Shown one piece after another: positions 5,339 through 56,430 of a DNA stretch of 64,000 bases. Each line of letters opens with the position of its first letter. Within the stretch, counting starts at the first letter, position 1. Origin of the DNA: Halichondria panicea (taxonomy: Eukaryota > Porifera > Demospongiae > Suberitida > Halichondriidae); NCBI RefSeq assembly GCF_963675165.1, contig NC_087385.1, positions 4,760,412-4,824,411 of the forward strand, in the 5' to 3' direction. A model generated the notes under the pieces. The model was not told the origin of the DNA, made no database searches, and saw nothing but the letters and a program-made list of their open reading frames with translations. Made by a program: the position numbers and the translations under genes.

Positions 5339-5698
5339 TGCACTACGACCTCTGCGTCTGTGTCAGGGTACGAAGGTGATATCAAGAGACAGCATACAGC
5401 TAGGTGTACCTCTTCACAGGCCTGCCATAGATAGGGTCATGTTTTGTAGCACTTGCCTGAGTTCTCTGGAGGATCAGAAACATTAATATCGAACACATTG
5501 GGCAACCCATATACCTTGTTTGTTGCCTTGAAGAGGGGCCTCCTCTTTACTTTAGGGGGCATTGATTTCTTCAAAATTAGACCTGTTTTTGACTTGCTGG
5601 CAAGCTACCTCTACCTTCTCTACATGGTCATGATGTAGGGCGTGGTCCCTACTCCCTTGCATTTGTGATTTGATCAACTCGTAGACCTCTATATTTAT

Positions 5699-5934
5699 TA
5701 GCCTCGAGACCAGCCGTTCGTTATCTGAAAGAACGCCTGGTCAAGTTCCAATGTAGCACTCGTTCTAGCTGAGTCAGCGTTTTATAGCTCATAATGATAT
5801 TCATTGGTAATACACCTTGGGCGGACCTTTGCGGGCAATTACCGGTCCAAGAAATTCCTGGACCATAGAACGAGTGCTACATTGGAACTTGACCAGGCGT
5901 TCTTTCAGATAACGAACGGCTGGTCTCGAGGCTA
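5699..5934. mobile_element. Foldback mini-element (236 bp) with 9-bp target duplication
   Basis: Perfect inverted repeats of about 68 bp (5700-5767 and 5865-5932) surround a spacer of about 97 bp. The ends are TAGCCTCGAG and CTCGAGGCTA. The 9-mer TATATTTAT flanks both sides exactly (5690-5698 and 5935-5943), which marks a transposition event. The right boundary is 4 bp from the ATG at 5948 of the next gene. It belongs to the same family as 7501-7531, 38817-39402, 41109-41153 and 53383-53570. Confidence 0.9.
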
Positions 5935-5947
5935 TATATTTATATGC

Positions 5948-7372: not shown

Positions 7373-7500
7373 CTTGTTTTTTGTTTTTATATTTGTGTTG
7401 TCATGAATTCATCTGATGTTGTGTATTACATGTGCCTGTTCACATGACTATGAATATAGTTGCAGAACTATTGAAATAAGGGGAAGATTGTGGTTAGAAC

Positions 7501-7531
7501 TTCGAGAAAAATCGGCCTGGGAACAAGGCTA
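7501..7531. mobile_element. 31-bp remnant of the TAGCCT foldback family
   Basis: The segment ends in CCTGGGAACAAGGCTA, one family terminus, and is flanked on both sides by GGTTAGAAC (7492-7500 and 7532-7540), an exact 9-bp direct repeat. The opposite terminus is missing or altered, so this looks like an internally deleted insertion. It lies in the space between the C25-like gene and the dioxygenase gene. Confidence 0.7.
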
Positions 7532-7741
7532 GGTTAGAACTATATAGCTGTTTCAGTGTTTTGCAGATTTTAAGGCAATGTCTTGAGCATATTAATCTAT
7601 CAAGGTTTACCATGTCAGTACATTTAAACCTACAGTATATAGAATACCAAAACACAAGATATAGTACATTCTTGCTCATAAAAATACACAAAACATGCAA
7701 CATACACATACAAAGATACGCATACACAAACACACTAAGTT

Positions 7742-37579: not shown

Positions 37580-39894
37580 AGTCAAGTTTGCTCCAGCGGC
37601 AATGCTGTGGACCTGGTCGTGCATTTCAAATGAGCATCACTGACAACAACAACAAGGAAGTGAGTTGGGTCAATGAAACATTAGCTATAACTGTGCAATC
37701 ATAGTAGTAGTGCGTACCTCATTGTTTGATTGTAAGGCTAGCATATTGACAAACTGACAGCATGGTGACAGGCGATATTGCTCCTTTGTATTGTACACAT
37801 GATTGGCTTACAATACATCCATTATCCTAATAGTGATTCACTGTGTACACTTTACCACCTCAGGTGATTCGCTTGGACCGTCCTCTTCGTTGCTACTACA
37901 ACTGCAGTGGTCTGACATGCTACTGTTGCTGCAGCTGTTGTGCCCCTCATGTGATTGAGGTGCAGGCCCCTCCAGGCAATGTTGTTGGCTACGTCAAGCA
38001 GGACGCCTTGGGAATACTCCGACCTTGGTTCTCTATTCAGAATGCTGATGGGGAGACCATGCTCAAGATCAAGGGACCTGTGCTCGGTTGTGCTTGCTAT
38101 GCTGATGCCAACTTTGAGGTAGGGTTGTCGGGTCGTCTCAAATTTCTTAATTGACTCCTACACATCATGTGTGGTTGGCACTTCCTTTTAAATAATTAGA
38201 TTGAACCCGTAGCACATTTTCTTTTATCTAGGGAATAGTAGCAACAAAAGGTAATCACACTTTACTGAATCTGCTCGTGTGTGATGTATAGGTGCTGTCA
38301 GCTGATGGCCAGACCAATGTGGGGCGCATCTGTAAGCAGTGGGGAGGACTGGCCAGGGAGTACTTCACTGATGCCGACAACTTTGGGATACAGTGTGAGT
38401 TGTAGTTTTATGAGGCAATTGCAAGTGTAGTCATATGATTGTGATACGTATTACGTGTATCTTAAGTATTCATGCAGAGGGGGCGGAGCTGATATGCTCA
38501 TGTTTGGGGTGCGCTCGCCCCCTTGGCTCCCCCTGGGATTAGCCCATACAAACTGTGTTACGGTCTGGGGACATACCAATGAATTATTCTACAATGTAAA
38601 TCACAGAATGAACTTCTACTCTTTCTGTTCCATATGCCCACAATTTCCTCTAATTTATCTGTAAGTAAAGGGGGCGATTCCAGAGCAATTTTCATTTAAG
38701 TAGGTGTTGTTTCAGGCCACCGTGTTTTGATGAGCTTCGTCTGGGAAAAGCTTTGCTCTACGGATGTGCAGTAGCCACAGCTATTTTATCCATCTAAACT
38801 GACTCATAGTACCACTTAGCCTCCTTCACCGGCCTTTGAAAGAAGGCCTGCTATCGACTGCTTGCGCATGCGCCAAATTATTGGATTTTTTTCCCGTAAA
38901 TATTCCTATAATACTGGATACATCAGAGAAAATATTCTAAAAGTCATACACAGAGCTATATAGCTAGCTAGCTAGAAACAGAGCTGTGTAGGTTTGTTGT
39001 ACTGCTATTTTCTTCTGATAGAATCAGTAGCAGTAGTTATAGTAGACTTTCACCAAAGTTAGTATTAAATGGGCGTGGCCTGTCCATATAGGCTCTTATC
39101 ATGTCAGCCGTCATTCCTTTCAGACGATTGTCATCCACACTGTTGCAGGCTGTGAGTCTTTTGTTAACATATCAGGCTAAGGGTAGCTATCAGAGAATGC
39201 TATCCGATGGGCTAGAAACCTTCAATCGAACTTTCTATCTACTTCCTTCAATCCACTTCCTTTTGTTGTGATGTCATAGTTTTACTGAGCATAAACGATG
39301 TTATCCAAAGCCCCCAGATACCGGGGGGATATTAGCGCATGCGCAAGCAGTCGATACCAGGCCCACTTCCCTAGCGGGAAGTGCGGCCTGGGATCGAGGC
39401 TAAGTACCACTAAGTTGTTTGAGCACATGCAGGCACTAGATTGTCACTGCTGCATCAAAAACTTTCATTCCACAATACAGTTTGTACTTCATAAAATCCT
39501 AACTTTAACACTGGCACCCTCAGTTCCTGAGAATACACCAGATGCAATATCACAGTCTAAAAACAAACATTTCTGGGGGGCATACCTCAAGATTCCCCTA
39601 GATGGCCGTGTGCCTAAGCGCACGGATATCCAGCTTGCCCCCCTGGAAATTTTCTGTATGAAGGCCTGTATAATACTATACATGTAATATTATTATTCTG
39701 TTGCAGTTCCCATGGACCTTGATGTCAAGATGAAGGCTGTGATGTTGGGAGCAGTGTTTCTCATTGTAAGTATACCTTATATTAAGCTAAAGGATCTGTA
39801 ATTAATTCACTCTGTCCCATTTCTCCAGGACTTCATGTTTTTCGAGAGTGCTGGTGGAGGGAACCAAAATGGTGGACGTCGCGCCCACTATTAA
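37580..39894 (+). pseudogene. Phospholipid scramblase unit B: exons 6-10 only, chimeric
   Basis: Exons 37580-37659, 37864-38118, 38292-38394, 39707-39765 and 39829-39894 are intact, in frame and have good splice sites; they encode the Cys cluster through the Ca-binding segment and the C terminus. Exons 1-5 and any promoter are absent: the homology starts inside intron 5. Exons 6-9 and their introns match unit C, whereas exon 10 and the 3' flank to about 40460 match unit A. Either it is a truncated pseudogene, or its exons serve as alternative 3' exons for unit A transcripts, because the preserved frames would allow A exon 5 to join B exon 6. A 586-bp foldback element interrupts intron 8. Confidence 0.85.
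38817..39402. mobile_element. TAGCCT foldback element (586 bp) with 9-bp duplication and empty site
   Basis: The ends are TAGCCTCCTTCACCGGCC and GGCCTGGGATCGAGGCTA. The target duplication is AGTACCACT (38808-38816, 39403-39411). The paralogous intron of unit C has one AGTACCACT (44645-44653) and no insert. Subterminal inverted segments (CGACTGCTTGCGCATGCGC, around 38860, and its complement near 39335) give further fold-back potential. No open frame is convincing. Confidence 0.92.
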
Positions 39895-40255
39895 TGAGAT
39901 AAGAGAACAACAAAATATACTTTTGAAGCCAGTATATATACATGGGCCTACTGAACAGACTTTCTTTTTAAAGCTTTTATTCTGTTTATACTATAATACT
40001 TCTGTATAGTTGTCTACATTTAAACGCAGGTAATTTTATTGACTAATTGCATGCAAACAACCATCACTCTGAGCGAAGGAGGCAACAGTCAAATAGGTCT
40101 CGATCTCCTTGAATTAAGGTGGGCTTTTTTATAGGGTTTGGATACCGCAGTTGTCCAAACAAAACCACACCATGCTGATATCTACAGCTGTACATACACA
40201 GGCAGCAAAAAAATATTTCTTGAGGATTATATAACATCAAAATTATATTGCACAA

Positions 40256-40310
40256 CTCAATAAGAACACTTCATCCACAAGAAACGTGTCAATAAGGTTA
40301 TGTCTAATAC
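40256..40310 (-). pseudogene. Relic of ASCC1 terminal exon behind scramblase B
   Basis: Same degraded segment as behind unit A, with the same one-base deletion. It lies inside a stretch of about 600 bp nearly identical to the A 3' flank. Confidence 0.7.
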
Positions 40311-40504
40311 AGTAGAACCTCCGAATAACAGACAAGTTGGTACAGGGGGTTTTGTCCGCTATTCAGAGGTTTCCTTTATTGGGAGGTTATACCATATAAG
40401 GTTACGTTACCCCAAATGTATTTAATGATGACTTCAAATACACAAATATGATGAACTGAAACAGTATATACATGTAGCCATGGTCTTTGGGAACAGATTA
40501 CTTA

Positions 40505-40785
40505 AACTACTTGTACAGTTCCGATGATTCTTTTCAAGGTGCTGGTTTTCTTAATCGGGTGTCTATAATCTCTCGGAAGTGTACCACTCTGGACTATACC
40601 AAATTTAAAGCATCATCTGAGTATAGTCCAGAGTGGTACACTTCCGAGAGATTAGACACCCGATTAAGAAAACCAGCACCTTGAAAATGGAACTGTACAA
40701 ATTGATAAAAGTACGTGTACCCGATGTCGGAAGTGTACATGTTGTGCACTTTGGACTATACTCAGATGATGCTTTAAATTTAGGG
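40505..40785. repeat. Compound inverted repeat between scramblase B and C
   Basis: Arms of about 80 bp (about 40517-40600 and 40620-40690) are almost perfectly complementary around the loop AAATTTAAAGCATCATCTGA. The loop sequence is itself present inverted at about 40752-40781, giving an A-B-A'-B' arrangement. No coding function seen. Confidence 0.85.
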
Positions 40786-41108
40786 GTAGATAAGTCATGA
40801 GCTTTCACTAGGGTTGTAAGACCACTGCTGATCAGTGCTAGTCCACTGAGCTGTTTTGTAATTGGGAAAGACTTGGTAACAAAGTAAAAGTGTTAGTATT
40901 TTTGTAGAAATGTGTTCTCTGCTGACTTTGGGGTGATCGACTGTTTATCACCAGATCAGATTGAACAGCACAGAGTAGTGGTCTGAAATAGAAAAAGAAT
41001 TGCATGTTGTGTCAAGGTACATCAGAGATAGATGAGGAACATTTGTTAATATTTATAGGTCAAGAATGTTTCCATGAACATGAGTTATAAGTTGAGTAAG
41101 GTTCTTGT

Positions 41109-41153
41109 TAGCCTCGATTCCAGGCCGCATTAATCGGCCTGGAATCGAGGCTA
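41109..41153. mobile_element. Minimal 45-bp foldback element, 9-bp duplication
   Basis: Two perfect 19-bp inverted arms, TAGCCTCGATTCCAGGCCG and its complement, surround CATTAAT. GGTTCTTGT flanks both sides exactly (41100-41108, 41154-41162). It contains almost nothing but the termini. Confidence 0.92.
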
Positions 41154-41310
41154 GGTTCTTGTCAAAGACAAAGTTGCACAAGTCCTGGGAAAACTGTGAT
41201 GAGCCAGTCAAAGATAGCCAGTTTAATATATCTAGTCACCTACAATCATAAGATTCTCATTTGTAGGTCCAGTTACACATAGCTATACCAAAAACATGTT
41301 TACCTGCTGC

Positions 41311-41369
41311 TAGTTGGGCGGAGTCCAACCACTTGCAGTGGCGAAGCGTGGTTGGACTCCGCCCAACTA
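41311..41369. mobile_element. 59-bp foldback element with TAG...CTA ends, 9-bp duplication
   Basis: Arms TAGTTGGGCGGAGTCCAACC and complement, spacer about 15 bp, flanked by ACCTGCTGC on both sides (41302-41310, 41370-41378). The terminal sequence differs from the TAGCCT family but the TAG/CTA ends and the duplication length agree. Confidence 0.87.
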
Positions 41370-41404
41370 ACCTGCTGCATGCCATCAGAGATTATAATAT
41401 CTTC

Positions 41405-41990
41405 TGCCCAGCCATCAATCCCTCTCGATCTCTTTATATTCTGCAGTGAAAACAGTGTCCATGCATAGATAGACTAGTACGAGGACTAGTATTACTATCT
41501 GCCCTCTACTATATGTACTATACTGAAGTTATTAGGCCCTGGCAAATTATGCCGGCATAATTTGGATATTAGAACAATAATAGGTTAATATGCTGGCATA
41601 ATTGGGCATAATAGGCTTAAAAATTGTGAATTTGGTCAGTTTGGTGCAAATGCAACGGTTCTCTGCTGTTGCTGAACGTGATTTTTCTCTTTTAAATGCT
41701 CCTTTACATCTAGAAGATTATGTTGAATTTATAAATGTACAATACAACAAGAGATAATTTTTTGTTACTACAACGTACTGCTGAAAAAAAAGATTTATGA
41801 CGTCAATGTGGGGCATAATGGGTTCTTTTGACAAGCATAATAGGCTGAATTTGGGGCAGTGCTCAAAAGCATAATAGGCAGAAAAAGAGCATAATTTGCC
41901 ACGCCTGCGCCTAGCGCCTAGAAGTTATGGTCCATTCAGCCATTTTACTTTCCCTCGACTTAAAACCGGCGGCCTTTAATAGAGCTTAGT
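41405..41990 (-). pseudogene. Relic of TPK1 exon 1 and promoter upstream of scramblase C, interrupted
   Basis: GCCATCAATCCCTCTC ... GTGAAAACAGTGTCC (about 41408-41460) and CCATTCAGCCATTTTACTTT ... GGCCTTTAATAGAG (about 41934-41985) match TPK1 exon 1 and its upstream region (32808-32905). They are separated by about 470 bp that include a TIR element. The coding frame is degraded. Confidence 0.75.
41540..41901. mobile_element. TIR element (about 362 bp) with TGGCAAATTATGC ends
   Basis: Terminal TGGCAAATTATGC and GCATAATTTGCCA are perfect 13-bp inverted repeats. Internal GGCATAAT motifs recur. A short open stretch (about 35 residues containing RFSAVAERDFSLLN, 41643-41755) may be transposase debris; the family is not identified. 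It splits the TPK1 relic. Confidence 0.65.
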
Positions 41991-42112
41991 TTGCAGCAGC
42001 CCCACCCATCCTTAATAGGGACTTGAGGACATGTGACCACATTAAAAACAGGGTGTGTCTCAGTTGTGCATCAAAGATAAACAAAATTATCTGCTAGCTG
42101 AATCACTTACCA

Positions 42113-45100
42113 ATGGCAGATCAAGGCGACATCCCTCTTGGTAAGGAGAAAGTATTTGTGTATTCTAATAATGCAATGATAAACTCATACAACAGGGGAG
42201 ACTTCTCCTGCACAAACTCAGGTTGGACCTACCCAACCCTCTCCTAGCAACCCTGAGCAACCTCCCCCTGCACAACCACCTGCAGGACAGCCAGCTAGCC
42301 AACCTCCACCACAATTACCATACCCTGCCGGGCAACCCGGACAGCCTGCTAGCCAACCTCCACAGCAAATACCATACCCTGCTGGGCAACCCGGACAGCC
42401 TGCTGCTGCTCCCTACCCTGGTCAACCGGCCCACCTGGCTGGGCCTCCTCCCTACTATGCTGGTCAGCCCCCACAACAACCAGGCGCTTACCCCCCGGGG
42501 GCCCCACAACAAGCAGGTGTTTACCCACCACCACCACCAGGTAAATTATAGACAGTATTCCTTGTGTCGATTAGAATTCCGGTAGTACCAATAATGATAC
42601 TCAACTGTGTATACTCCCCAGGTCCTCAGCCACCCCCTGGAGCAGGGTATGGAGCTGGGTTTGCTGGAGCGTTTGCAGGAGCACTGGGCGCTGCTGTGCA
42701 GCCACAGCAGGTGAACAAGTACAGTCAGTCAGTCATTTATATCTAGTTTCAGATGCTTATGGCTTGTGCCCATTTTGTGTGCCTGATAGTCTGTAATTTC
42801 ATGAGATTTTCCCCCGTACAGGTGCAATGGATGGCTGCCCCCACTGATGCCCCCAGTGACTGCCCCCCAGGACTAGAGTATCTCATTCACATCGACCAAG
42901 TCCTCGTCAACCAGCAGATTGAAGTATTTGAGTGTAAGCTTCCTCTATGTGTTGTACATGTACGTATGTTACATTGCAAAGATACTTGCTAATATTTCGC
43001 ACAGCACATAATTATGTGGATACTGTAGTCTGAGTAAATAAAGAATTTGGATACCTTTTCGAAGCAATTTAGGAAAGTCTTCTGAAGAGTTTACGTAATA
43101 ATTATGTGTAGCTTGTACAGGAGAGCCTTCCTAGAGTTTACTAATGAAATCACGAACCCTGAACCTTGCAAAGTCAAACGAAGTCTTCGTCAAACTTCGC
43201 AAACTTGATGCAACCTATCGTATTGTTATTCAGTTGATTCATTTTCATTTCCCTCTATTAGTGATCACCAACTTTGAGACTCAGAACAAATATCGTATCC
43301 GTAACACTCTAGGACAGCAGGTCTACTTTGCTGCAGAAGGTGAGTTCTTTGACCCCGTGTGTAGCTTGCATCAACAGAACCCTTTCTATTGTTTAGTTTT
43401 AGAGCTCAACTAAGGTTTCTTCTTTAAATAATTTAATCTCCGCTAGAGTCAAGTGTGCTCCAGCGGCAGTGCTGTGGACCTGGTCGTGCATTTCAAATGA
43501 GCATCACTGACAACAACAACAAGGAAGTGAGTTGAGTCAATGAAACATTAGCTATAACTGTGCAATCATAGTAGTAGTGCGTACCTCATTGTTTGATTGT
43601 AAGGCTAGCATATTGACAAACTGACAGCATGGTGACAGGCGATATTGCTCCTTTGTATTGTACACATGATTGGCTTACAATACATCCATTATCCTAATAG
43701 TGATTCACTGTGTACACTTTACCACCTCAGGTGATTCGCTTGGACCGTCCTCTTCGTTGCTACTACAACTGCAGTGGCCTGACATGCTACTGTTGCTGCA
43801 GCTGTTGTGCCCCTCATGTGATTGAGGTGCAGGCCCCTCCAGGCAATGTTGTTGGCTACGTCAAGCAGGACGCCCTGGGAATACTCCGACCCTGGTTCTC
43901 TATTCAGAATGCTGATGGGGAGACTATGCTCAAGATCAAGGGACCTGTGCTCGGTTGTGCTTGCTATGCTGATGCCAACTTTGAGGTAGGGTTGTCGGGT
44001 CGTCTCAAATTTCTTAATTGACTCCTACACATCATGTGTGGTTGGCACTTCCTTTTAGATTGAACCCGTAGCACATTTTCTTGTTTATCTAGGGAATAGT
44101 AGCAACAAAAGGCAATCACACTTTACTGAATCTGCTCGTGTGTGATGTATAGGTGCTGTCAGCTGATGGCCAGACCAACGTGGGGCGGATCTGTAAGCAG
44201 TGGGGAGGACTGGCCAGGGAGTACTTCACTGATGCCGACAACTTTGGGATACAGTGTGAGTTGTAGTTTTATGAGGCAATGCAAGTATAGTCATATGATT
44301 GTGATACGTATTACGTGTATCTTAAGTATTCAGCAGAGGGGGTGGAGCTGACATACTTGGGGCGCGCTCGCCCCCTGGCTACAGATTGGCCCCCCCCCCC
44401 GGGATTAAGCCATAACAAACTGTGTTACGGTCTGGGGACATACCAATAAAATACCTTGTCTTAATTGTTCTACAATGTGAATCACAGGATCTGTAAGTAA
44501 AGGGGGTGATTCCAGAGCGATTTTCATTTAAATAGGTGCTGTTTCAGGCTACCGTGTTTTGATGAGCTTCGTCTGGGAAAAGCTTTGCTCTACGGATGCA
44601 GTAGCCACAGGAATAGACACAGCTATCTATCTAAGCTGACTCATAGTACCACTAAGTTGTTTGAGCAACATGCAGGCACTTGAGATTGTCACTGCTGCAT
44701 CAAAAACTTTCATTCCACAATACAGTTTGTACTTCATAAAACCCTAACTTTAACACTGGCACCCTCAGTTCCTAAGAATACACCAGATGCAATATCACAG
44801 TCTAAAAACAAACATTTCTGGGGGGCATACCTCAAGATTCCCCTAGATGGCTGTGTGCCTAAGCGCACGGATATCCAGCTTGCCCCCCATTTTTTGAAAT
44901 GTGACTGCCCCCCTGGAAATTTTCTGTATGAAGGCCTGTATAATACTATACATGTAATATTATTATTCTGTTGTAGTTCCCATGGACCTTGATGTCAAGA
45001 TGAAGGCTGTGATGTTGGGAGCAGTGTTTCTCATTGTAAGTATACCTTATATTAAGCTAAAGGATCTGTAATTAATTCACTCTGTCCCAGGACTTCATGT

Positions 45101-45156
45101 TCTTCGAGACTGCTGGCGGAGGGAACCATAATCGTGGACGTCACGCCCACTACTGA
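42113..45156 (+). CDS. Phospholipid scramblase, unit C (complete, 10 exons)
   Basis: Exons 42113-42140, 42196-42540, 42623-42710, 42822-42933, 43262-43339, 43447-43526, 43731-43985, 44153-44255, 44977-45035 and 45091-45156. Same architecture as unit [11 protein letters not shown] start, longer Pro/Gly/Gln-rich N terminus in exon 2 ([10 protein letters not shown] repeats), Cys cluster extended by a [16 protein letters not shown] version, [19 protein letters not shown], and Ca-binding [16 protein letters not shown]. The C-terminal exon differs slightly ([16 protein letters not shown]). Exon 7 is 6 codons longer than in unit A (255 against 237 bp) because of the Cys-region insertion, a difference shared with unit B. 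It lies tail to tail with ASCC1. Functional splitting between A and C is unknown. Confidence 0.95.
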
Positions 45157-45587
45157 TGAGATAACGATAGTATAATACATACTGAACTCAAACATTTTGT
45201 AGGTTTTATCCCATTTTATTTGTTTATACTATAATACTGTTGTATAATATTATATTGTGAGTACTTGGCTACATGTTGAGTAATTGCGTGCAAACAACCA
45301 TCACTCTGAGCGAAGGAGGCAACAGTCAAATAGGTCATTTATTGATCTCCTTGACTTATAAATGTATATATTATACGCAGTTGACCCAACTGTTTCACAG
45401 AGTGAATTGTCCAAACAAACCGCACCATGCTGAGATCTACGTTATGCATAATAATTAGCCGCTCCTTCTCTTATTTACGGGTTCCTGATATATTATGTAG
45501 GCAGCAAAAAAGGTTATCAGATACACTTAAATTACAGACATAAATTATTAGCTAGTGCACGACTCAACATAAGATCTATAGAACACT

Positions 45588-48312
45588 TCATCCACAAGAA
45601 ACAGTGTCAATAGGGTAATGCCTAACACATCTATAAAATCCATCTGGTCCATATTCGCCTCTTTTAGACAAGTGGACGTGCTGAAGAGGGATTTCGCCAA
45701 ACTTGAATTCTCCAAATTTCTGTAATAACGATTAATGGTTCCGCAATATTCAGAGGTGGAATAGCAATAGGCAATAACAAAATACCAGACTACGTAATTA
45801 TATACTGTGGTGGAAATGTTTGTATTTCTCGTATTGTAGAGCATCACACAAAAATTAAAACTACAAAATTAATCTACCGCAATAAGGTTGTAGGTCACTA
45901 TGCTGAGCTGTTGTACAAAATTTGAAATATTTAATTGCACAGTTATATATAATTCATATGAACATTTTCATGAACAAAAATTATACGGTACTTTCTCATA
46001 TATTTGAAGGACATCCTGCATGACACACCCTATAGGAGCGTTCAGCCAATCCTACCAACATAATTACCCTATAGTTACACTGTACTGAGTGCCCTACCTT
46101 GAATATTGTTCTTGCATCAAATGTCTCCCTGGGACCCCTGCCTCTGTGAGGGGTTCTCAATGCCTTCTGTTGGTCTGCCAGCTCTCGAAATGCCGAGTTT
46201 AAAATTGTGGCATGAAGTTTGACTCCAATTCTCTCGAATTCTCTGGTCATGAGGTCGGGAGCCTTCTCCATGAACGAAGCAACAAGTGTGTCCACAAACC
46301 TCTGTAATCTAGGAAGTAACAGCGTAATAACTCGTGACCTTATGTTATAGTTATCATGTTATAGTCGTCATAATTATGCCCATAGGAAGGGTTACTTGAA
46401 GATATCTACCGTATTACTAAACATATAATTGTGCGAGCGTTGATGAATTGGCAAATATAAATATAAAATTGCAAAACCTAAATTAACGCTGGTCATTTTT
46501 CACACGATTTGCCAAAAGGGTCATTTCTGCTCATTTGGCTCATTTGCAAAGGTTTTTTCCTCCCGCAAAATATTTAAAATATAAATTGGTCTGATTCACA
46601 ACCCCTACATGTAGACGTCAAAGTACATTGAAATTGAGTTTCTTGTGTCGCTATTCTGTGTATAAATTGCGTACCATACCTGGCAGATGAGTCCTTCAGT
46701 GACACCTTAGCATAGAGCACACTCACAGCTGAGGGGTCATCATTCATACAGTCTACACCAGAGAGGGTTATCATAACAGTCTCGTCACCAAGGCAATCTC
46801 TGAGAGGAAAATAATTTGTAATCATTGGAGGGGGGTACAAAGATGTCAGCAAAAAAACTTGATACGAGATTTGCACATCGTCATTACTTTCCTGGTAGGT
46901 GGCATGTAGGAAATTCACCTTGCTTCAATAACACACTCCTGAAGGACAGACTTGGCTTTTTCCTGAGACAAAGCCATAATGGTCACTACATGTACTGATA
47001 CATTCTGTGCATGAGCCTCACCACTTCTTCTGGTGTGAATAGTCTCATGACACCAACCGTCAGGTGGAGCTTGGCAGGAGTCTGGAACAGATCCTCACTC
47101 ACCCCTTTGTCCTGTAGCAAATGGAAAACATTCATAGCTATTATAGATGTAGATCTAAGCATTCTTCAGATTCAAAAGGGAGGTCGCGATCACACTTTTA
47201 GCCAATTTTAATGGAAACGTTGCATATAGGTCTACACTATACTTAAATGTTGTAAATCTGAGATACAGGATAGTCTCCACCTTGGAGCATGATGCCAGTA
47301 CTTGGGACCTGAACTCATTCAGTCGCTCGGTGATAATTGGGTGGTTAAGTGGGATGGAGATGAAGTGGGAGATAGGCTCCTTGAGACGATTGGACCACAC
47401 TATTATATCCAGTCTCCTTTTGGCGTCAGACAGGCGAGACACAGTTTCACCTTCAATAACTGAATAGTGTGACAAAATAAAAAAATGTGTGACGGTAAGG
47501 ATCATTGCAATAAGAATTGCATTATTGTTAATCAATAAAGTTCCTAGCTAGCCTCGTTCCCAGGCCAATTTTTAAAGAAAAAATTGGCTTGGGAAAGAGG
47601 ATAGGTATACACCAAGCTCACCAATGTCTCCCTCAGTTCCTCGCTGGGGCACTCTGATCCGAGTCTTGGTGTCTTTTTCAATGGATGATTTTGTACCGCC
47701 TTTCCACCCGATTATGTACTTGTAGAAATCCGATGGAATGACCATTCTGAGCATGAACCCCTTGCCTCCTGGTAGAGGCTCGACCCCTTCAAGCTCAGTC
47801 TCATCGTCTTCTCCACCCTCATCAAAACGGTCATCTGTGTGTGAGATCTTTATTCACCCTTTAACTAGAGGAGAGGGTTCAAGTGGCATATACGGCACCA
47901 GATGTAGGTGTGGGAGGGAGGGAGGGGTTCGAGTTAGCAAAGGAAAAGTTATAAATTTTAGGGTGTTTCCACATCCGTTGCACATCCGGTGCCATATAAG
48001 CCTCATGATCCGAGGAAAGTAAACTATTTATCCGAGTGAGGACAACTATACGATAGCTAGACTAGAAACCCTTTTATTAACAGCCCTCTGACATATACAT
48101 ACAGTCAAGGCCACCCATTAAAAGATACCCATGTAAGTTTGGGTGACACTAAGATCCATGTGGGTCTCTTCTGTTTGTCCAAAGGAGTGGATTATTTTCC
48201 GATAACATCTTCCATCGCTAAGAGACACGAGAGTAGGCTGGAGAACCTCATTCACCCTCCCAGGATGACAGCTGGTGACACATACATCACTAGATGGTGG
48301 CTTTCTGCTCAT
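45588..48312 (-). CDS. ASCC1: ASCC1, activating signal cointegrator complex subunit 1
   Basis: KH plus 2H-phosphoesterase-like protein that in vertebrates works with the ASCC3/ALKBH3 alkylation-repair complex. ATG 48312 starts an exon with VLQPTLVSLSDGRCYRK, as in the family N terminus. The next exon (about 47835-47625) has the KH domain, MLRMVIPSDFYKYIIGWKGG, then SSIEKDTKTRIRVPQRGTEG. Further exons encode FISIPLNHPIITERLNEFRS, KLHLTVGVMRLFT, GVDCMNDDPSAVSVLYAKV, and RIGVKLHATILNSAFREL. The last exon (about 45725-45588) encodes KFGEFKFGEIPLQHVHLSKR to SCG stop. The H-x-T/S-type phosphodiesterase signatures appear as KLHLTVG and KLHATIL. A 55-bp foldback element sits in an intron (47549-47603). 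Confidence 0.92.
47549..47603. mobile_element. 55-bp TAGCCT foldback element in ASCC1 intron
   Basis: TAGCCTCGTTCCCAGGCC and a slightly diverged complement (GGCTTGGGAAAGAGGATA) surround an A/T spacer. No clear 9-bp duplication remains, so this is probably an older copy. Confidence 0.65.
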
Positions 48313-48591
48313 CTTTCACTTCCACGGATTATATACCTCATCTAGCTAGCTGGAGTCTTTATGACAGACAGTCAGTTTCAATTTGAGCACACACATGGTA
48401 AATGTGCTGATGATGGCATGCACAACCCTTCCCCCTTTTAATTTACCTAATTATTATTGAGAACTAAATTGTACTGTAAGTAAACTCATGATGTAACATA
48501 TGAAACACATAATGGACCTACAACTAGCTAGCTACTCAAATTCAGAAACTGTTCAAGTTTGTCAGCAGTTGAAACGACCCGAATCATCGAA

Positions 48592-50373
48592 TCATCGAAT
48601 CATCGAAATCATATCTCTATTTTTGAGCTTGATATCACGCATGGCTGGGATGATGCCCTTTTGAAATGCTATTTGGACAAGATCATCCGCTGTTTTTATG
48701 TCAGGGTATTGACGAAGGGCCCATTTGAGATACGCCAAAAATTCGTTCCAGTCCACAGATCCATCAGAATCCATATCGATTGATATGAATGCTTTCTTGG
48801 TGTCATCGCATCGGTAGCAGCCAAAGTAAGGAGCCATGAAGGCGGCGTAGAAGGAATCGAAACTTAAAACCCCGTCTCCCTTCCTGCCTGGACGTCGACC
48901 ACCCCTTCTGCGGGGACGTCTCTTTCCCTCTTTATCGTCCCACTTGTCCCAAATCTGCTTAATGTCGTCAATGAGCTCTTGGTGGTACTTTAATGCCACT
49001 TTATCGTTGGCAACTATTTCGCCCATCTCAGCGGTTAGCTTACCACCAGCTCGATCAAACAGAATGGCAATTCCTGCTTTGCTCATGTACTCTTCTTTTC
49101 GATTGTCCTTCAAGTCTTCCATGATCTTTGCCTTCATTGCGCTTCCAATTTCCAAAGTGAACTGATCATTTTCCGGAAACAGATCTTGGAGCCTGTCTAC
49201 CAACATTTCGGGAGTAGCCAGAGTTGTGATACGCACTGGAGCCTCCACACCGAAAAACTCGGCAACATCGAAATCTCCAATTCCGAGGAATCCAAACACA
49301 AGATCTGCAGCTCGATCTCCATAGATGGGCTGCTTAGGATGTGGTGCTACACCTGTGGTGATTTTGGTGACGTTGTATGCGGCCTGTCGAAAATACTTGC
49401 AGTTGTACTTGCTCAAGATCTTCTCGTTTCCCATTCGAATCAGGTTCATCATTGTCACAGTAGAACTAGCGTGACCGAGAGCAGCTCCCTCGTCACACAG
49501 GCTGGCCCATACTCCATCGGCACCTGCACTCAAGCAGTCGAGCTGGGAGGCTGTCTGGAGGTCCCATTTCTGATGGATGTGCACAAGCAGCTTGCCGTCA
49601 CTCCAACCGTTTGAATCCATTGTCCTTCGTATAGCTCCAGTCCAAGCTTCAAGCTCTTCTGGGAGGAATTCACCAAACGGATCTTCAAAAGCAAGAGCAA
49701 ACATCCGGTAGGGCTGGGGCATTCTCGCAAGGAATGTCACGATTTCGAGCACTCTTTCGGGGACTTTCGTCATTGCATAAGGGAGATCACGCATGTTCAG
49801 AAGAATGCGAGGATTGGCATCAGCGGGGTGGTTATCATGCACCCACTTGATCCATTTAAAGATGAGTTCGCAAATGTCTTTAGTAAAGACCTTCACTCCC
49901 CATTCAACGTCAGTCCCTGCGAAATCGGCTTCGAAAAAGGTGTTTGCAATACCGTACTTCAAGTTCTTTTCAAGGGAGACAGGAACGTCATCAGTATCAT
50001 AAGCTCCATCTTCGACCACGTCGTAGATTTCAGAAAAAGAAAAAAACCCTCCCATGTCTTCTTTTTCGTCTACAAGCCATTGGCAGAAATCATCATCGAT
50101 GCGAGCAGTCTGAGAGAAAGAGGCAACAATCACATCGGTCATTCCGGCTTTCTTGATCTCTTTGAATATGGCCTTTTTGTTTTCGAGGGTATGGCTACGC
50201 AGTTGACCAACTGTGCTTTCACGGAGTGAGTTGTCCAAACAGAAGAAGTCCATTGTTCGAAGTCTCTCTCGCTTTTCGACCCGAACAGTCTCAATCTCGG
50301 ACTTCATCCGTTCCACTTCTTGTTTGATGCATGCACTTGCTTGATCCATTTTTTGCCTTTTGGAAGGGTTCAT
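48592..50373 (-). CDS. HMGL-like TIM-barrel protein with C-terminal EF-hand, intronless
   Basis: A 593-residue single-exon gene; ATG 50373. Residues about 45-330 look like a pyruvate-carboxyltransferase/HMG-CoA-lyase-type barrel: LDNSLRE (47-52; compare DxTLRE in the family), then LLVHIHQKWDL with His265 and His267 in the metal-site position, and LSAGADGVWASLCDEGAALG, the usual strand after it. The canonical first Asp-x-Thr is replaced by Asp47-Asn-Ser. A basic linker (RRPRRRGGRRPGRKG) precedes an EF-hand pair of which one loop is canonical (Asp533-Met-Asp-Ser-Asp-Gly-Ser-Val ... Glu544, DMDSDGSVDWNEF). The combination suggests a Ca-responsive aldolase or acyl-transferase-like enzyme, but reaction and substrate are unknown. 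The absence of introns amid intron-rich neighbours suggests retroposition or gene transfer. Confidence 0.72.
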   Translation of the reverse strand: MNPSKRQKMDQASACIKQEVERMKSEIETVRVEKRERLRTMDFFCLDNSLRESTVGQLRSHTLENKKAIFKEIKKAGMTDVIVASFSQTARIDDDFCQWLVDEKEDMGGFFSFSEIYDVVEDGAYDTDDVPVSLEKNLKYGIANTFFEADFAGTDVEWGVKVFTKDICELIFKWIKWVHDNHPADANPRILLNMRDLPYAMTKVPERVLEIVTFLARMPQPYRMFALAFEDPFGEFLPEELEAWTGAIRRTMDSNGWSDGKLLVHIHQKWDLQTASQLDCLSAGADGVWASLCDEGAALGHASSTVTMMNLIRMGNEKILSKYNCKYFRQAAYNVTKITTGVAPHPKQPIYGDRAADLVFGFLGIGDFDVAEFFGVEAPVRITTLATPEMLVDRLQDLFPENDQFTLEIGSAMKAKIMEDLKDNRKEEYMSKAGIAILFDRAGGKLTAEMGEIVANDKVALKYHQELIDDIKQIWDKWDDKEGKRRPRRRGGRRPGRKGDGVLSFDSFYAAFMAPYFGCYRCDDTKKAFISIDMDSDGSVDWNEFLAYLKWALRQYPDIKTADDLVQIAFQKGIIPAMRDIKLKNRDMISMIR

Positions 50374-52240
50374 TCAAGTGTTCACAATCAGGAGTTGCAG
50401 AATTGGAGGAAAGTAAACTGACTAAGGAATAGTTTTTTCAACAGCAATTTATACCAAATGCAAACCACAACAGGAATTTATACCAAATTAGACAGGAAGT
50501 AAAGGTTCACAAAATATTATCAGGTGATAGAGAGCCTGAGGTTGAGGAAATGAAGATTGCTTGTAAACCCATGTAGAGAGCCTGGGCCCATGGGCACTTT
50601 GTCACTCAATTTGCATGCTGCTGTATATTGGCACCTTTGCTCATAATTATACTACCTAACTTATAGTGATCTTGAAATGAATGCAGTCTGAACTTTCACT
50701 TTAAAACAAATTACTCAAATAAGTTGTGAGATTGCCTGCACAAGCATAGTGAACAGTCTGCATTAATTCCACTGTGCATATACTTGTGACATATAGGGAT
50801 TGCGGTGTACCGTGTATAACTTTTGCGGAAAGACCATTAGAAAGGTTTTTGCATAGCAGTATTTTTGCAGCAGCATGCATGCATGCGATAATAAATGTAC
50901 AGTTAATTGTGTATGGGTAATAAAATATTCACGGTACATGCTTATAAAATCACGAACATGTATACCTGTTATCAGTGCATGAATTCCAGTCGCTATATGG
51001 GTCTTATCCCTACAACTATCATGAGAGGTCACTTACTATTCCTTCGCTAAGCATGACTCCACTGTATATATCTACTTACCCATTATCTATTGTTGACAAA
51101 CAATATGCATAACAACTGTGAGACAGTTTGACACAAAATTTGACATTCAGAATGCACAATTAAGTAATTAGGTAGCTAGCTACAGTACATACATAACAAG
51201 TCTCACACAAAAAATAATGAAAGTTATGTTTCTTTATTAATACGCTTGACAACATGAACTCTTTGACTCCAAACGCTTGCCACAAGTGTGTGATGTCGAT
51301 ATACAACTGCAGAAAACAAAATCATGGAACTCATGAGGTGTAAGGAGAGGCTATGCAACTTTAACAACATTACTAGAGGAAAGGAGAGGGTATATGCACC
51401 CAACAGCTGTAGGAAACCGAGGGTAGCACTATATACATACTTGTACTATGGTTGCACCAAAGATCAAAGGCTTCAGTTGTAGTTTATACTACTTATACAA
51501 CCTGTCTGACCACAGCCATGGTATATGGCTGTTATACCCTAGTGTATAACTGCCATATACCATGGCTGTGGTCAAACTACATGTACAGCTAGAACTGAAT
51601 ACTGTATCCCACCTTTGCAACAAAATTGACACACTGTTTCAATTAAAACAATGACACACTACTCAATTCAATCAATATTAGCAATATTAGAGCTAGAGAG
51701 AATTCAATACAAAACAGACTACTAATGATTTTAGTCAACATAAAAAGAGCCAAGTTCGAGCGATGAATAGTTCCAAAAAGGAGGCAAATTTGGAAGAACT
51801 CCGTGAATCGAACGATACTGGTTTGTTTGTGTTGCTTTTTTTCAACTTTCAACATTGGTTGTCACAACCTGCTTATTACATTGCTGCATGGGACCAGGAG
51901 CAGTAAGAAGGGTCCAGACTGCCAAGTTTTTCTCAGACTAAAGAGACTGCACTGCACTGCACTGGGCCAGTACAGTAGGCTTGTGGAATGATATTTTGGG
52001 GTACATTTGCACTCTTTGTAGACAAGTAGCACCAGTGTACTTTCTTGAAGTGCCTTCTATAAAGATGCAGAAACACAGCCTTCACAATTGCTTGCTTGAA
52101 TCATAGACGCTTGCTTGAATCATAGACGCTTGCTTGAATCAGCCATCGCTTTTTAAAAGGATAGCAAATTCATTGCATAGCTATAGCAACAGTGACGTCA
52201 AACAGTAGTTATAAGCATATTCATTGAAGAAGCATGACAG
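50374..52240. other. Gene-free stretch, start of about 11-kb repeat-rich desert
   Basis: No exon-like or conserved protein was recognised on either strand. It includes a nearly complete 64-bp hairpin at 51508-51572 (arms GACCACAGCCATGGTATATG with an inner GTTATAC/GTATAAC pair). A short three-copy direct repeat GCTTGCTTGAATCATAGAC occurs near 52090-52140. Confidence 0.6.
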
Positions 52241-52256
52241 GAAGTAGCTAAACATA

Positions 52257-52482
52257 CCGTATAGCGCGAAATTTTCGAGGCACTTATATTTCGTGGATTG
52301 GCCTCTAAAAGCCATTTCGTTGCACAATGTTCGCGGAATGACTGCTTACCGGAAGCCACGCCTTTAGATCTTGCACGTTATAGCAGGTAAAGAACGATTT
52401 TCGTGGACTTAATTTTCGTGTAGGATTGCTAACCCACGAAATCCACGAAAATTAAGCCCCTCGAAAATTTCGCGCTATACGG
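52257..52482. mobile_element. Mariner-type MITE (226 bp) with TA duplication
   Basis: Perfect terminal repeats CCGTATAGCGCGAAATTTTC (24 bp in full) lie at both ends, flanked by TA. Same family as the RANBP2-intron copy at 19402-19605, but with much better preserved ends, so younger. Confidence 0.85.
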
Positions 52483-52513
52483 TAGTAGTACAGTTCTAAA
52501 CATAGTACAAGCC

Positions 52514-52645
52514 AGTTAAACTATGGCCTCTCGTGGTATATTTGCTTTACACGCTCGAGTAATCAGATAAACCAACTCGGCTGCGCCTCGTGGTTTATCA
52601 GATTACTCTTGCGTGTAAATCAAATATACCACTCGAGGCCATTGT
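52514..52645. repeat. Inverted repeat, about 52-bp arms
   Basis: GTTAAACTATGGCCTCTCGT ... and its near-complement ending GGCCATTGTTTAAC enclose GGCTGCGCCTCGTGG. A simple cruciform-capable element with no coding potential. Confidence 0.8.
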
Positions 52646-52689
52646 TTAACTATAACATATACTATACTACATATATATATACATAATTA

Positions 52690-53200
52690 TATATACTACA
52701 GCTGCCTGGGTAAAGATGACATTTAATACCAAGAGGGAATTGCACACTACATGTGTAGGAAGCAGATGGGTATATTATGCACTACGGAATGTACTATACA
52801 GCTGCCTGGGTAAAGATGACATTTAATACCAAGAGGGATGCATTGCACACTACATGTGTAGGAAACAGACAGGGTGCACTAGGTGGAATGCACTATGGAA
52901 TGCAATTACTTCAGCCTACAATCAGATATGTCCTCAAACATAGTGACCCAAACTGGCTTCATAGGAACCAGTTACCATGCCATCAACCTACAATCAGATA
53001 CCTTCTCAAACATAGTGACCCAAACTGGCTTCATAGAGGATAAAGGAACCAGTTACCAATGCCATCAACCTACAATCAGATACCTTCTCAAACATAGTGA
53101 CCCAAACTGGCTTCATAGAGGATAAAGGAACCAGTTACCAATGCCATCAACCTACAATCAGATATGTCCTCAAACAAAGTGACCCAAACTGGCTTCACTG
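52690..53200 (+). repeat. Two adjacent tandem arrays (about 105 bp x2; about 76-87 bp x4)
   Basis: The first array repeats CAGCTGCCTGGGTAAAGATG units. The second repeats CAACCTACAATCAGATA ... GTGACCCAAACTGGCTTCAT four times. Fragments of the second unit reappear at 54115-54160 and 54680-54760, so later insertions split the array. The open frames across it are repeat artefacts. Confidence 0.85.
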
Positions 53201-53224
53201 TCATAAAAATTATTACCAGACCAG

Positions 53225-54120
53225 GGATACAGACAATTGCAAGTTGGTTGTCCAGGTGAAGTGCAGTGTTGATTTGTATAGTAATTAGCCCAATATTAGG
53301 GTGACCACAGTGTTTTTGTTTGAGTCTCTAGGAATTGGCTAGCTTGAAAATGTTGAATGTTGCTTGGATAGCTAGCTAGGATTAGCCTCCTTTGCGGGCC
53401 CTCAATAAGAATTAAGAATGGAGAAGAATGGAGAAAAGAAAGAAGGAAGAGACAAAGAAAAAGGAGATCTCCTTTTTCTTTGTCTCTTCCTTCTTTCTTT
53501 CTTTGTTCCTCTAATTCGTTACGTATTTTGAACTATTGTGACAAAGAACAGAAAAGGAGAGCCTAGGCTAAGCTAGGATTATGCCCAAAGCAATTTCAGA
53601 TGATTTGATTTGCTGGAGAAACGTTCCCAGTATATGATTATACAACATAGTACCAAGGGCGTATAAAAGAAGAGAGGGCATGCAACTCCACTATCAGTAC
53701 ACGTAGCTAGCTGAGTTCATGGGCGGAGGAATGTGTGCATTTGCATAAAGTGCTAAAAATAGAAATTTCTATTTTTAGCATTTCATGCACAATCATGCAC
53801 ATTCATCCGCCCACGTTTGAACTATGCTCATATAGGAGTTGCATGCCCTCTCTTCTTTTATATGCCCTTGATAGTATGTTATACGTTCAACTGTTTCACA
53901 CAGACATAAAAGTACTTTGCCACTTTTTGATTGAAGTAAAGCCTCTATATAATCCTCCACCTTACAAATCTGAAATTGCATTGGCCATGATCCTAGCTAG
54001 CTATCCAAGCAACATTCAAAATTTGCTCTAATAAAAACACTATGGTCACCCTAATTGGGCTAATTACTACAGTGCAATTCAACACTGGACAACCAACTTG
54101 CAATTGTCTGTAAAGGAACC
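53225..54120. mobile_element. About 900-bp imperfect palindrome splitting a tandem array
   Basis: The outer arms share GACAATTGCAAGTTGGTTGT (53230s and complement near 54105), then TAGTAATTAGCCCAAT, GGGTGACCA and GAATGTTGCTTGGATAGCTA. Inner arms share AAGAAGAGAGGGCATGCAAC. The centre is AAAAATAGAAATTTCTATTT at about 53767. The left arm carries a 188-bp nested insertion that the right arm lacks. Confidence 0.85.
53383..53570. mobile_element. TAGCCT foldback element (188 bp) nested in the palindrome
   Basis: Begins TAGCCTCCTTTGCGGGCC, ends GAGAGCCTAGGCTA, flanked by AGCTAGGAT (53374-53382, 53571-53579). It contains a zero-spacer hairpin of about 30-bp purine/pyrimidine arms (GAAAGAAGGAAGAGACAAAG ...). 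The opposite palindrome arm has the uninterrupted AGCTAGGAT site. Confidence 0.9.
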
Positions 54121-55236: not shown

Positions 55237-56430
55237 CTCACAAAACTAGAGCACTAAAGTGCAAACCCTTGGCTGGTGACATGATAATAAAGAAACCAGA
55301 GGAGTGATATAAAATGCAGTGCATGTAGCATGTACAGCTGTTTGCATAGACCTTGCAAAATACTAAATTCACTGCATTACCACAAAACTACCATACAATG
55401 TTGCTATGCAAACAAAAAGTATTGGGTACATTCACATTCATAAAAAGTGAGCAATGTTGCATGACTTCAAGAAATAGACTACATGGAGAGTCATAGAACC
55501 AGGAGGATTTAAAGTAGAGAATGGTCTACCAACGCCTTATGCTGAGACTTGTGCTGTACGAAAAATGTTTACGCTAAAGAGCCTACTAACTTGCTCACTG
55601 CGGTATACCGGTTTTGACCATCAAGTCCGAACATATTTCTCTACTAGATTAGCACCAAACAATATTTTGTGATCTGTTAGTGTTTAAGGTACTTCGTACT
55701 AACAGTTTCTTCAGCCTGAAACTTCAAGCCTCACCATAATTATGTGAGTTTCCATACCACCAAGAGTAGATAAAAGCATCTACTCTTGATATAATTTATA
55801 CCACCTTATATAGCAGGTATTTTTCGAGGGTCTACTCAAAAAGTACCCGTTATACAAGTTCTAGAAACCATTATTGCTCAGGACTGCATGTTGTTTGCAT
55901 AGCAACATTGTATGGTGATTTGTGGTTTTGTGGTAATGCAGTGAGCTGATTTAGTATTTTGCAAGGTCTATGCAAACAGCTGTATGAGCAACTCAAGAGC
56001 AATAAAACTAAACTAACAATGTACATGCATGAGACATGCACTGTGGAGACTGGGATCACAGCAAAGAAGCCTGGAGTCTTAAACTTAGAGAAGTATGGCT
56101 CCTGCCAAGCTGGAATATAGGATCCAGAGTCAGTCAACAACCAACTCATCTACTTATGACCCTATTCAATTGTTCCTGGTACGAATCACTTCAGCTGCAA
56201 ATACGTAGTCAAGGCCACGTGTAGCTAGCTAGCTGCCAACGTGCAAGTTTAAGCTTCTTAGCTTTTGCTCGCTTTTATTCAACAAAGAAGCTCTAATCAA
56301 AATCTGCCACTATTAAAACTAATAACTTGTTGTGTGAAGACTATCCACGCAGCGCTGTGACATCCAGGTGAGTAGACTCAACAAACAAACCAACAGACTA
56401 CTATACCCGTGGCTGCCCACGCGTGCCTCG
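55237..56430. repeat. Dispersed repeat copy 2, split by about 650 bp
   Basis: The 5' block (55237-55330) and 3' block (about 55990-56430) match the 18380-19040 copy in order. The intervening DNA contains a foreign inverted segment: TAGACCTTGCAAAATACTAA ... CATACAATGTTGCTATGCAA near 55348-55410 reappears complemented at 55890-55975. Confidence 0.7.

What the first reader, a model, noticed from the sequence alone, without database searches (positions are those of the whole stretch)
38808..53579. A family of foldback mini-elements (TAG...CTA, 9-bp duplications) down to 45 bp
Six insertions (5699, 7501, 38817, 41109, 41311, 53383) have exact 9-bp flanking repeats and five share TAGCCT(N)CAGGCC-type termini. 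Sizes are 236, 31, 586, 45, 59 and 188 bp. The 45-bp copy is essentially two 19-bp ends around a 7-base spacer, so the ends alone may suffice for mobilisation. Nine-base duplications are typical of Mutator-like (MULE) transposases. The varied interiors with conserved ends suggest repeated capture or internal rearrangement.
Basis: partly seen in the sequence, partly recalled or inferred. Interest (0 to 1): 0.82.

Follow-up and report, generated by a model that had tools for sequence, protein, structure and literature searches.

The report
Transposons shrunk to hairpin-tipped scars
The tiny 'mini-elements' are real and belong to abundant families of small DNA transposons that duplicate 9 bases on insertion, but most look like full-size copies that lost their middle where they sat, leaving just the two ends, rather than the smallest hopping units.

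Summary
All six insertions have exact 9-bp flanking repeats and the stated sizes. Four have TAGCCT at both ends, one (7501) at one end, and one (41311) belongs to a second family, TAGTTGGGC. The 18-base end occurs 4,695/4,715 times (<=2 mismatches) in this 131-Mb eukaryotic genome; the reversed pattern gives 0. Flanking repeats are 9 bp, sometimes 10. The inference that the ends alone suffice for movement is not supported. Full-size parents (about 751 and 1,085 bp) sit at different targets with their own duplications. Short copies (20-103 bp) mostly have different junctions: 34 sequences in 42, 9 in 9, 11 in 11. One ancestral site shows a 285-bp and several 58-59-bp versions of one insertion. 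Sizes fall in two classes: in one subfamily 11 listed pairs are 75-103 bp, none 104-981, 26 are 982-1,227. The short class ends about where a hairpin built into many termini ends, for three loop lengths, give or take two bases. Best reading: scars of copies that broke or excised and collapsed in place, joined with little or no homology. The trigger is inferred. No autonomous partner was found. MULE membership fits the duplication length but is unproven.

The parts
5699..5934 (.). 236-bp foldback element, TAGCCTCGAGACCAG ends; 9-bp duplication TATATTTAT at 5690-5698 and 5935-5943
5708..5742 (.). left terminal hairpin of the 236-bp element (outer arm nt 10-15, inner arm from nt 39); mirror copy at 5891-5925
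   Evidence: 6-nt exact match; shuffled p 0.068 left, 0.04 right
7501..7531 (.). 31-bp eroded remnant, TAGCC-type end on the right only; duplication GGTTAGAAC at 7492-7500 and 7532-7540
   Evidence: read
38817..39402 (.). 586-bp element; duplication AGTACCACT at 38808-38816 and 39403-39411; right terminal hairpin 39357-39391
41109..41153 (.). 45-bp short copy, family 1; duplication GGTTCTTGT at 41100-41108 and 41154-41162; the same 45-mer lies at two other sites with other duplications
41311..41369 (.). 59-bp short copy, family 2 (TAGTTGGGCGGAGTCCAACC); duplication ACCTGCTGC at 41302-41310 and 41370-41378; 31 + 31 nt of a known parent type with 3 nt overlap
53383..53570 (.). 188-bp element, TAGCCTCC / TAGCCTAG ends; duplication AGCTAGGAT at 53374-53382 and 53571-53579; no terminal hairpin of 6 nt or more

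Best explanation
These are non-autonomous, MITE/foldback-type DNA transposons with about 18-20 bp inverted ends that insert with a 9-bp (sometimes 10-bp) duplication. In 11 of 20 longer copies tested both ends are themselves hairpins (the inner half of the inverted repeat, a loop of roughly 9-36 bases, and an inverted copy of that half); in 3 one end is, in 6 neither. Full-size copies have moved: near-identical copies sit at different targets, each with its own duplication. The tiny copies are mostly scars made in place: after a break or an excision of a full-size copy, everything between the two terminal hairpins is lost, and the two stubs (end plus part of the loop, sometimes trimmed into the end) are joined with 0-9 bases of shared sequence or a few unmatched bases. 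Shown: parents, duplications, varied junctions, two size classes, and the approximate hairpin bound in the subfamilies read. Inferred: that collapse followed insertion (one site shows both sizes), and that the trigger is transposase excision followed by aborted repair, the terminal hairpin stopping repair synthesis.
For: Parents: three family-2 copies of 751-755 bp, 99-100% identical, at different exact 9-bp duplications; the 1,085-bp subfamily, 7 of 7 copies checked at 1,075-1,088 bp with their own exact 9-10-bp duplication, plus L162 exact and L161 with one mismatch. Junctions: 9 sequences in 9 family-2 and 34 in 42 family-1 short copies, 11 in 11 in the 1,085-bp subfamily. Ten family-2 short copies split into parent arms of 20-39 nt, overlap 0-9 nt in 7, 2-7 unmatched bases in 3. 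Sizes: 11 pairs of 75-103 bp, 0 of 104-981, 26 of 982-1,227 among 100 listed of 1,098 ends; family 2, 11 of 46-65, 5 of 210-427, 12 of 717-755 among 100 listed of 373 ends. Inner-arm starts at nt 55, 34/35 and 29/30 give limits of 108, 67 and 57-59; observed maxima 103, 65 and 59. Same-site series 285, 59, 59, 58 and an eroded 58-59 bp at target GGGGGGTGC, the target single in 13 of 19 other host-repeat copies read; 59 = 285 minus a stretch between GTA repeats. Stubs of 20, 23 and 25 bp with exact duplications.
Against: Identical short sequences lie at independent sites: a 25-mer at eight (4 and 3 sites with exact 9-bp duplication for its two variants, one with 10 bp), the window's 45-mer at 3, a 48-mer at 2; recurrent joins at CGAG or TTAA could give this, but so could transposition. 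Flank identities of the same-site series do not fix which size is ancestral: the 285-bp copy is closest to a 58-bp one, 99.5%. 15 of 40 parent ends show no 6-nt hairpin, including both ends of the 285-bp copy, and many of the other 25 are related to each other with single-end shuffle p up to 0.14. The hairpin bound is approximate: the window's 59-bp family-2 copy exceeds its limit (58) by one base, and short-loop copies of 58-59 bp exceed it by 1-2 if the longer arm is counted. The size rule was found on these data; the one prediction made beforehand was a weak test. Excision as the trigger has no direct evidence, and no transposase was tied to these ends.
Confidence: 0.55

Rival explanations
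1. Collapse in place without any transposase: the terminal hairpins form cruciforms that are cut at their loops, or cause replication slippage, deleting the interior.
For: Break points lie in or next to the hairpin loops on both sides, as loop cutting predicts. A repeated stretch inside L164 looks like templated filler, as in break repair in general.
Against: The 285-to-59-bp case has no 6-nt terminal hairpin. One-sided losses should be common; they cannot be judged from lists of exact ends (26 of 100 and 44 of 100 listed ends unpaired).
Confidence: 0.27
2. One reading: tiny copies are mobile as such, the two ends being enough for a transposase supplied in trans.
For: Identical 25-mers, 45-mers and 48-mers at different targets with exact duplications.
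Against: Most short copies are unique (9 sequences in 9; 34 in 42; 11 in 11), whereas some full-size copies recur nearly unchanged. 20-25-bp forms keep only about 8-13 bases of one end. Two ends 20-40 bp apart could hardly be paired by a transposase dimer (inference).
Confidence: 0.13
3. Chance palindromes with chance flanking repeats.
For: None.
Against: Reversed-pattern controls give 0; flanking-repeat length jumps from 0-3 to 9.
Confidence: 0.01

Closest known systems
Mutator-like elements (MULE) and non-autonomous derivatives, e.g. Muta1 of Aedes aegypti (PMC5225508, passages read)
   Same: 171 Muta1 derivatives have perfect 8- or 9-bp duplications; terminal repeats are often truncated; excision in yeast (donor without duplications) occasionally left up to 13 bp of the terminal repeat.
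   Different: No transposase could be tied to these ends; stubs here keep up to about 55 nt of each end and show a hairpin-related size limit.
Foldback / Rehavkus-type elements (PMC6446971, passages read; Tetris and Tm1 papers seen in search listing only)
   Same: 9-bp duplication (Rehavkus); inverted-repeat-rich ends.
   Different: Ends here are short with one built-in hairpin, not repeat arrays; a separate family in this genome with repeated CACACGAGATCAAC-type ends looks more like those.
Internally deleted P elements and P excision (PMC7776569, passages read)
   Same: Internal deletion; a cut 17 bp inside the inverted repeat would leave part of the end at the donor site.
   Different: P-type elements duplicate 8 bp; here 9-10. 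P-type domains exist in this genome (29 hits), but the two loci partly read showed no paired ends.
Gap filling in animal Pack-TIRs (PMC8277862, passages read)
   Same: Microhomology at junctions; the paper expects excision-driven aborted repair to give large deletions with break points near the ends.
   Different: They found breaks biased to the interior; here break points hug the termini, and no captured filler was noticed.

Membership tests
MITE (miniature inverted-repeat element) | short, inverted ends, target duplication, high copy number | tested here: met
MITE (miniature inverted-repeat element) | non-coding | not tested
   coding potential of the 751- and 1,085-bp parents was not scanned
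Mutator-like (MULE) | about 9-bp duplication (8-11; range partly recalled, values 9, 9-11 and 8 or 9 seen in passages) | tested here: met
   72 pairs at 9 bp, 9 at 10, 2 at 8, 289 at 0-5, of 372 unique-flank pairs
Mutator-like (MULE) | autonomous copy with MULE transposase between the same ends | tested here: inconclusive
   31 PF10551 hits; 30 read as 3.2-kb loci, 0 enclosed by a pair of either end type; 6 of them also read in 5-8.5 kb, 0 enclosed
Foldback | long inverted arms that fold the whole element | tested here: inconclusive
   seen in the 236-bp window copy and the 90-103-bp copies, not in the 751-bp parent beyond its termini
P superfamily | 8-bp duplication | tested here: not met
   the 8-bp value is from passages of PMC7776569
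hAT | 8-bp duplication (recalled) | tested here: not met
KDZ (Kyakuja-Dileera-Zisupton) | KDZ transposase between the same ends | not tested
   53 KDZ matches, many of them pieces of one gene; their flanks were not read

The most novel reading that the evidence does not exclude
The terminal hairpins act as a built-in stop for repair of an excised or broken copy, so that a transposon population turns over by collapse: roughly a third of recognisable two-ended copies (11 of 37 and 11 of 28 listed pairs) are reduced in one step to a stub whose size is set by the hairpin, giving a hairpin-length rule that predicts the scar size of any subfamily.
Probability: 0.3. Interest if true: 0.65.

Novelty: new variant of a known kind. 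Interest (0 to 1): 0.5.

Why it matters
Very short elements flanked by target duplications are easily read as the smallest mobile units. Here thousands of ends in one compact genome let one separate movement (full-size copies) from decay (stubs), and suggest a size rule tied to terminal hairpins. If it holds, it offers a testable link between element-end structure and how excision gaps are repaired, and warns that stub-plus-duplication sites record past insertions rather than new families.

Tried and rejected
Autonomous partner. The 30 MULE loci read (of 31 hits) were searched in 3.2 kb for the first end and then for both end types, and six of them in 5-8.5 kb: no enclosing pair. P-type hits (29): one locus read in 6 kb, no ends; another has an exact end 3 kb upstream, and no right end (<=6 mismatches) or duplication in the 2.5 kb read from its domain on; 2.75 kb in between were not read. 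KDZ hits were only counted.

A P-like 17-nt staggered cut as the source of constant-length stubs was considered and dropped: retained stubs range from about 8 to 55 nt and follow the loop length. Snap-back copying of one end was dropped as the sole route, because the two ends of some 36-bp stubs differ at three positions.

Misses. Of 46 places read out of 60 matches of TTCCAGGCC-N(0-17)-GGCCTGGAA, 15 have exact 9-bp repeats, two of these (L054, L060) in simple repeats and weak; 31 do not: 10 (L065, L066, L070-L076, L078) are the terminal hairpin of longer elements, L047-L050 are copies of one locus, the rest have mismatched, shifted or damaged flanks. Of 21 sites of 16-32 bp read out of 60, 14 have exact 9-bp repeats, one (L140) 10 bp and one (L147) 8 bp; 5 none. 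Of 11 short copies of the 1,085-bp subfamily, L166 and L173 have no clean duplication. Among family-2 short copies L105 has none and L107 one mismatch. The catalogue admits up to one mismatch in the duplication and includes the weak L054 entries.

The size rule was formed on the 1,085-bp and 751-bp subfamilies. The prediction written beforehand gave 5 pairs (47, 56, 58, 298, 298 bp; the two 298s are copies of one locus). The three short ones are within 57-59, the limit of their loop type depending on how the arm is counted, but their own parents were not read: consistent, weak.

Papers: searches (8 searches); in the titles and abstract starts listed I saw no hairpin-bounded collapse and no 20-25-bp stubs with duplications. 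The library lacks most subscription papers. Passages of PMC1978519 and PMC10983969 were also read and not used.
Full report
What is there. The window lies in a 131-Mb, 39-contig eukaryotic assembly (organism not given, not identified). All six insertions are real, with the stated sizes and exact 9-bp flanking repeats. Four carry TAGCCT at both ends. The 31-bp one at 7501 keeps it on one side. The 59-bp one at 41311 belongs to a second family whose end, TAGTTGGGCGGAGTCCAACC, occurs 193/180 times at up to one mismatch, 0/0 for the reversed pattern.

More than chance. The 18-base end TAGCCTCGATTCCAGGCC occurs 4,695/4,715 times at up to two mismatches, and 0/0 for the reversed pattern. In 187,830 bases not chosen by the end, 182 TAGCC...GGCTA pairs were examined: 171 have a longest flanking repeat of 0-3 bp, 11 have exactly 9, none lie between or above (about 8 independent). 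Over everything read, 372 pairs with unique flanks give 72 at 9 bp, 9 at 10, 2 at 8 and 289 at 0-5; the set includes a few composite pairs at tandem sites, and most loci in it were chosen by the ends. In a dispersed host repeat the target GGGGGGTGC runs on uninterrupted in 13 of 19 further copies read; 4 differ at that point, one carries a 54-bp insertion between two copies of the target (L127), and one an insertion with an eroded left flank (L115) (the script's label for L115 is wrong, its letters show the insertion).

Parents move. Family 2 has 751-755-bp copies, three of them 99-100% identical, at different targets with exact duplications. A TAGCC subfamily whose arms read GGCCGAGT has 555/543 exact 22-base ends. 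7 of 7 copies checked at 1,075-1,088 bp have their own 9-10-bp duplication; of the two read whole, L162 has an exact one and L161 one mismatch.

Short copies are mostly one-offs. Of 9 family-2 copies of 46-65 bp with a duplication (at most one mismatch), 9 differ; 42 family-1 copies up to 65 bp hold 34 sequences. Of 11 short copies of the 1,085-bp subfamily, 11 differ: 8 have an exact 9- or 10-bp duplication, a ninth (L170) if the element starts 5 bases further out, two none. Ten family-2 short copies were compared with the parents read: each is a prefix and a suffix of 20-39 nt, with overlaps of 0-9 nt in seven and 2-7 unmatched bases in three (two of the ten, L090 and L092, lie in copies of one host repeat). 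Exceptions: a 25-base stub at eight sites (TCCC and CCCC variants), the window's 45-mer at three, a 48-mer at two. The 25-mer is what a join at the shared CGAG between an arm reading GGCCGAG and the opposite end would give, and such arms are common, so repeated formation is plausible but not proven.

How small. The pattern TAGCCTCG-N(0-16)-CGAGGCTA has 60 places, control 0. Of 21 read, 14 have exact 9-bp duplications, including stubs of 20, 23 and 25 bp. In these the inverted end itself is cut, which makes insertion as such unlikely (inference).

One site, two sizes. Copies of one chromosome segment on contig C1 carry, at the same target, versions of 59, 285, 59 and 58 bp with exact duplications, and one of 58-59 bp whose left duplication is mostly gone (L115). 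The 59-bp form equals the first 32 and last 30 bases of the 285-bp form (one mismatch in the latter) overlapping by GTA. Flank identities of 98.6-99.5% do not fix the direction; collapse is more economical than regrowth, but this is inference.

The hairpin bound. In 25 of 40 ends of 20 longer copies, the inner half of the inverted repeat has an inverted copy of at least 6 nt further in (single-end shuffle p from 0 to 0.14 for these, and many are related). Both ends qualify in 11 of the 20, one in 3, none in 6. The inner arm starts at nt 55 in the 1,085-bp subfamily, 34-35 in the 751-bp copies, and 29-30 in the short-loop type (L004), giving limits of 108, 67 and 57 (59 if only GGCCTGG is counted as the arm). 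Short copies reach 103, 65, and 59 bp for GATTAAAATAC-type loops, so the last type exceeds the stricter limit by 1-2 bases. The window's 59-bp family-2 copy exceeds its own limit (58) by one base. Pair lengths fall in classes: 75-103 and 982-1,227, nothing between, among 37 pairs from 100 listed of 1,098 ends, all on contig C1; 46-65, 210-427 and 717-755 among 28 pairs from 100 listed of 373 ends (four of the 46-bp pairs share one host repeat, and the copies of 373-427 bp have arms of their own subtype). Lists of exact ends favour two-ended copies, so one-sided losses are undercounted: 26 and 44 ends were unpaired. A third end variant, searched after writing the prediction down, gave only 5 pairs and is a weak test.

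Mechanism. In-place collapse is the reading I hold. Its trigger is open. Excision followed by aborted repair fits what PMC8277862 says such repair should look like (passages) and the partial ends left by Muta1 (passages). Nuclease cutting of extruded hairpins fits the loop-bound break points equally well.

Classification. MITE-type: size, ends, duplication and copy number met; coding potential not scanned. MULE: duplication length met; 0 of 30 MULE loci read are enclosed by these ends, with partial flank coverage. P and hAT: duplication length not met. KDZ: present (53 matches), not tested.

Noticed in passing
window 55342-55975: 634-bp stretch with 24-bp identical inverted ends (TTGCATAGACCTTGCAAAATACTA) and an 8-bp direct repeat ACAGCTGT: candidate of a different transposon family.
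   Followed up: no
L014 231-332 and L137 102-205: Tandem units element-duplication-element-duplication sharing the same 9-mer (57+36 bp; 40+23+23 bp), as if the same target was used twice or the unit was duplicated.
   Followed up: partly
L029, L030, L033: MULE-domain locus family with ends made of repeated CACACGAGATCAACTTTCACGAGATCAAC-type units, resembling foldback/Rehavkus ends (resemblance recalled).
   Followed up: no
L019-L024, L031: A MULE-domain family with about 97-99.9% identical copies on several contigs and open frames up to 809 aa, without these inverted ends in the 8.5 kb read around one copy: possibly recently active.
   Followed up: partly
L116-L132: Dispersed host repeat whose edge reads CAGGGGCGTAGCCAGGATTTGAGATAGGGGGGTGCTTGATGAA; 40 matches scored of 116 candidates to its flank.
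   Followed up: partly
window 16889-17161: Short tandem repeat with GTGGTGGAG followed by TAGTGA at several units (seen).
   Followed up: no
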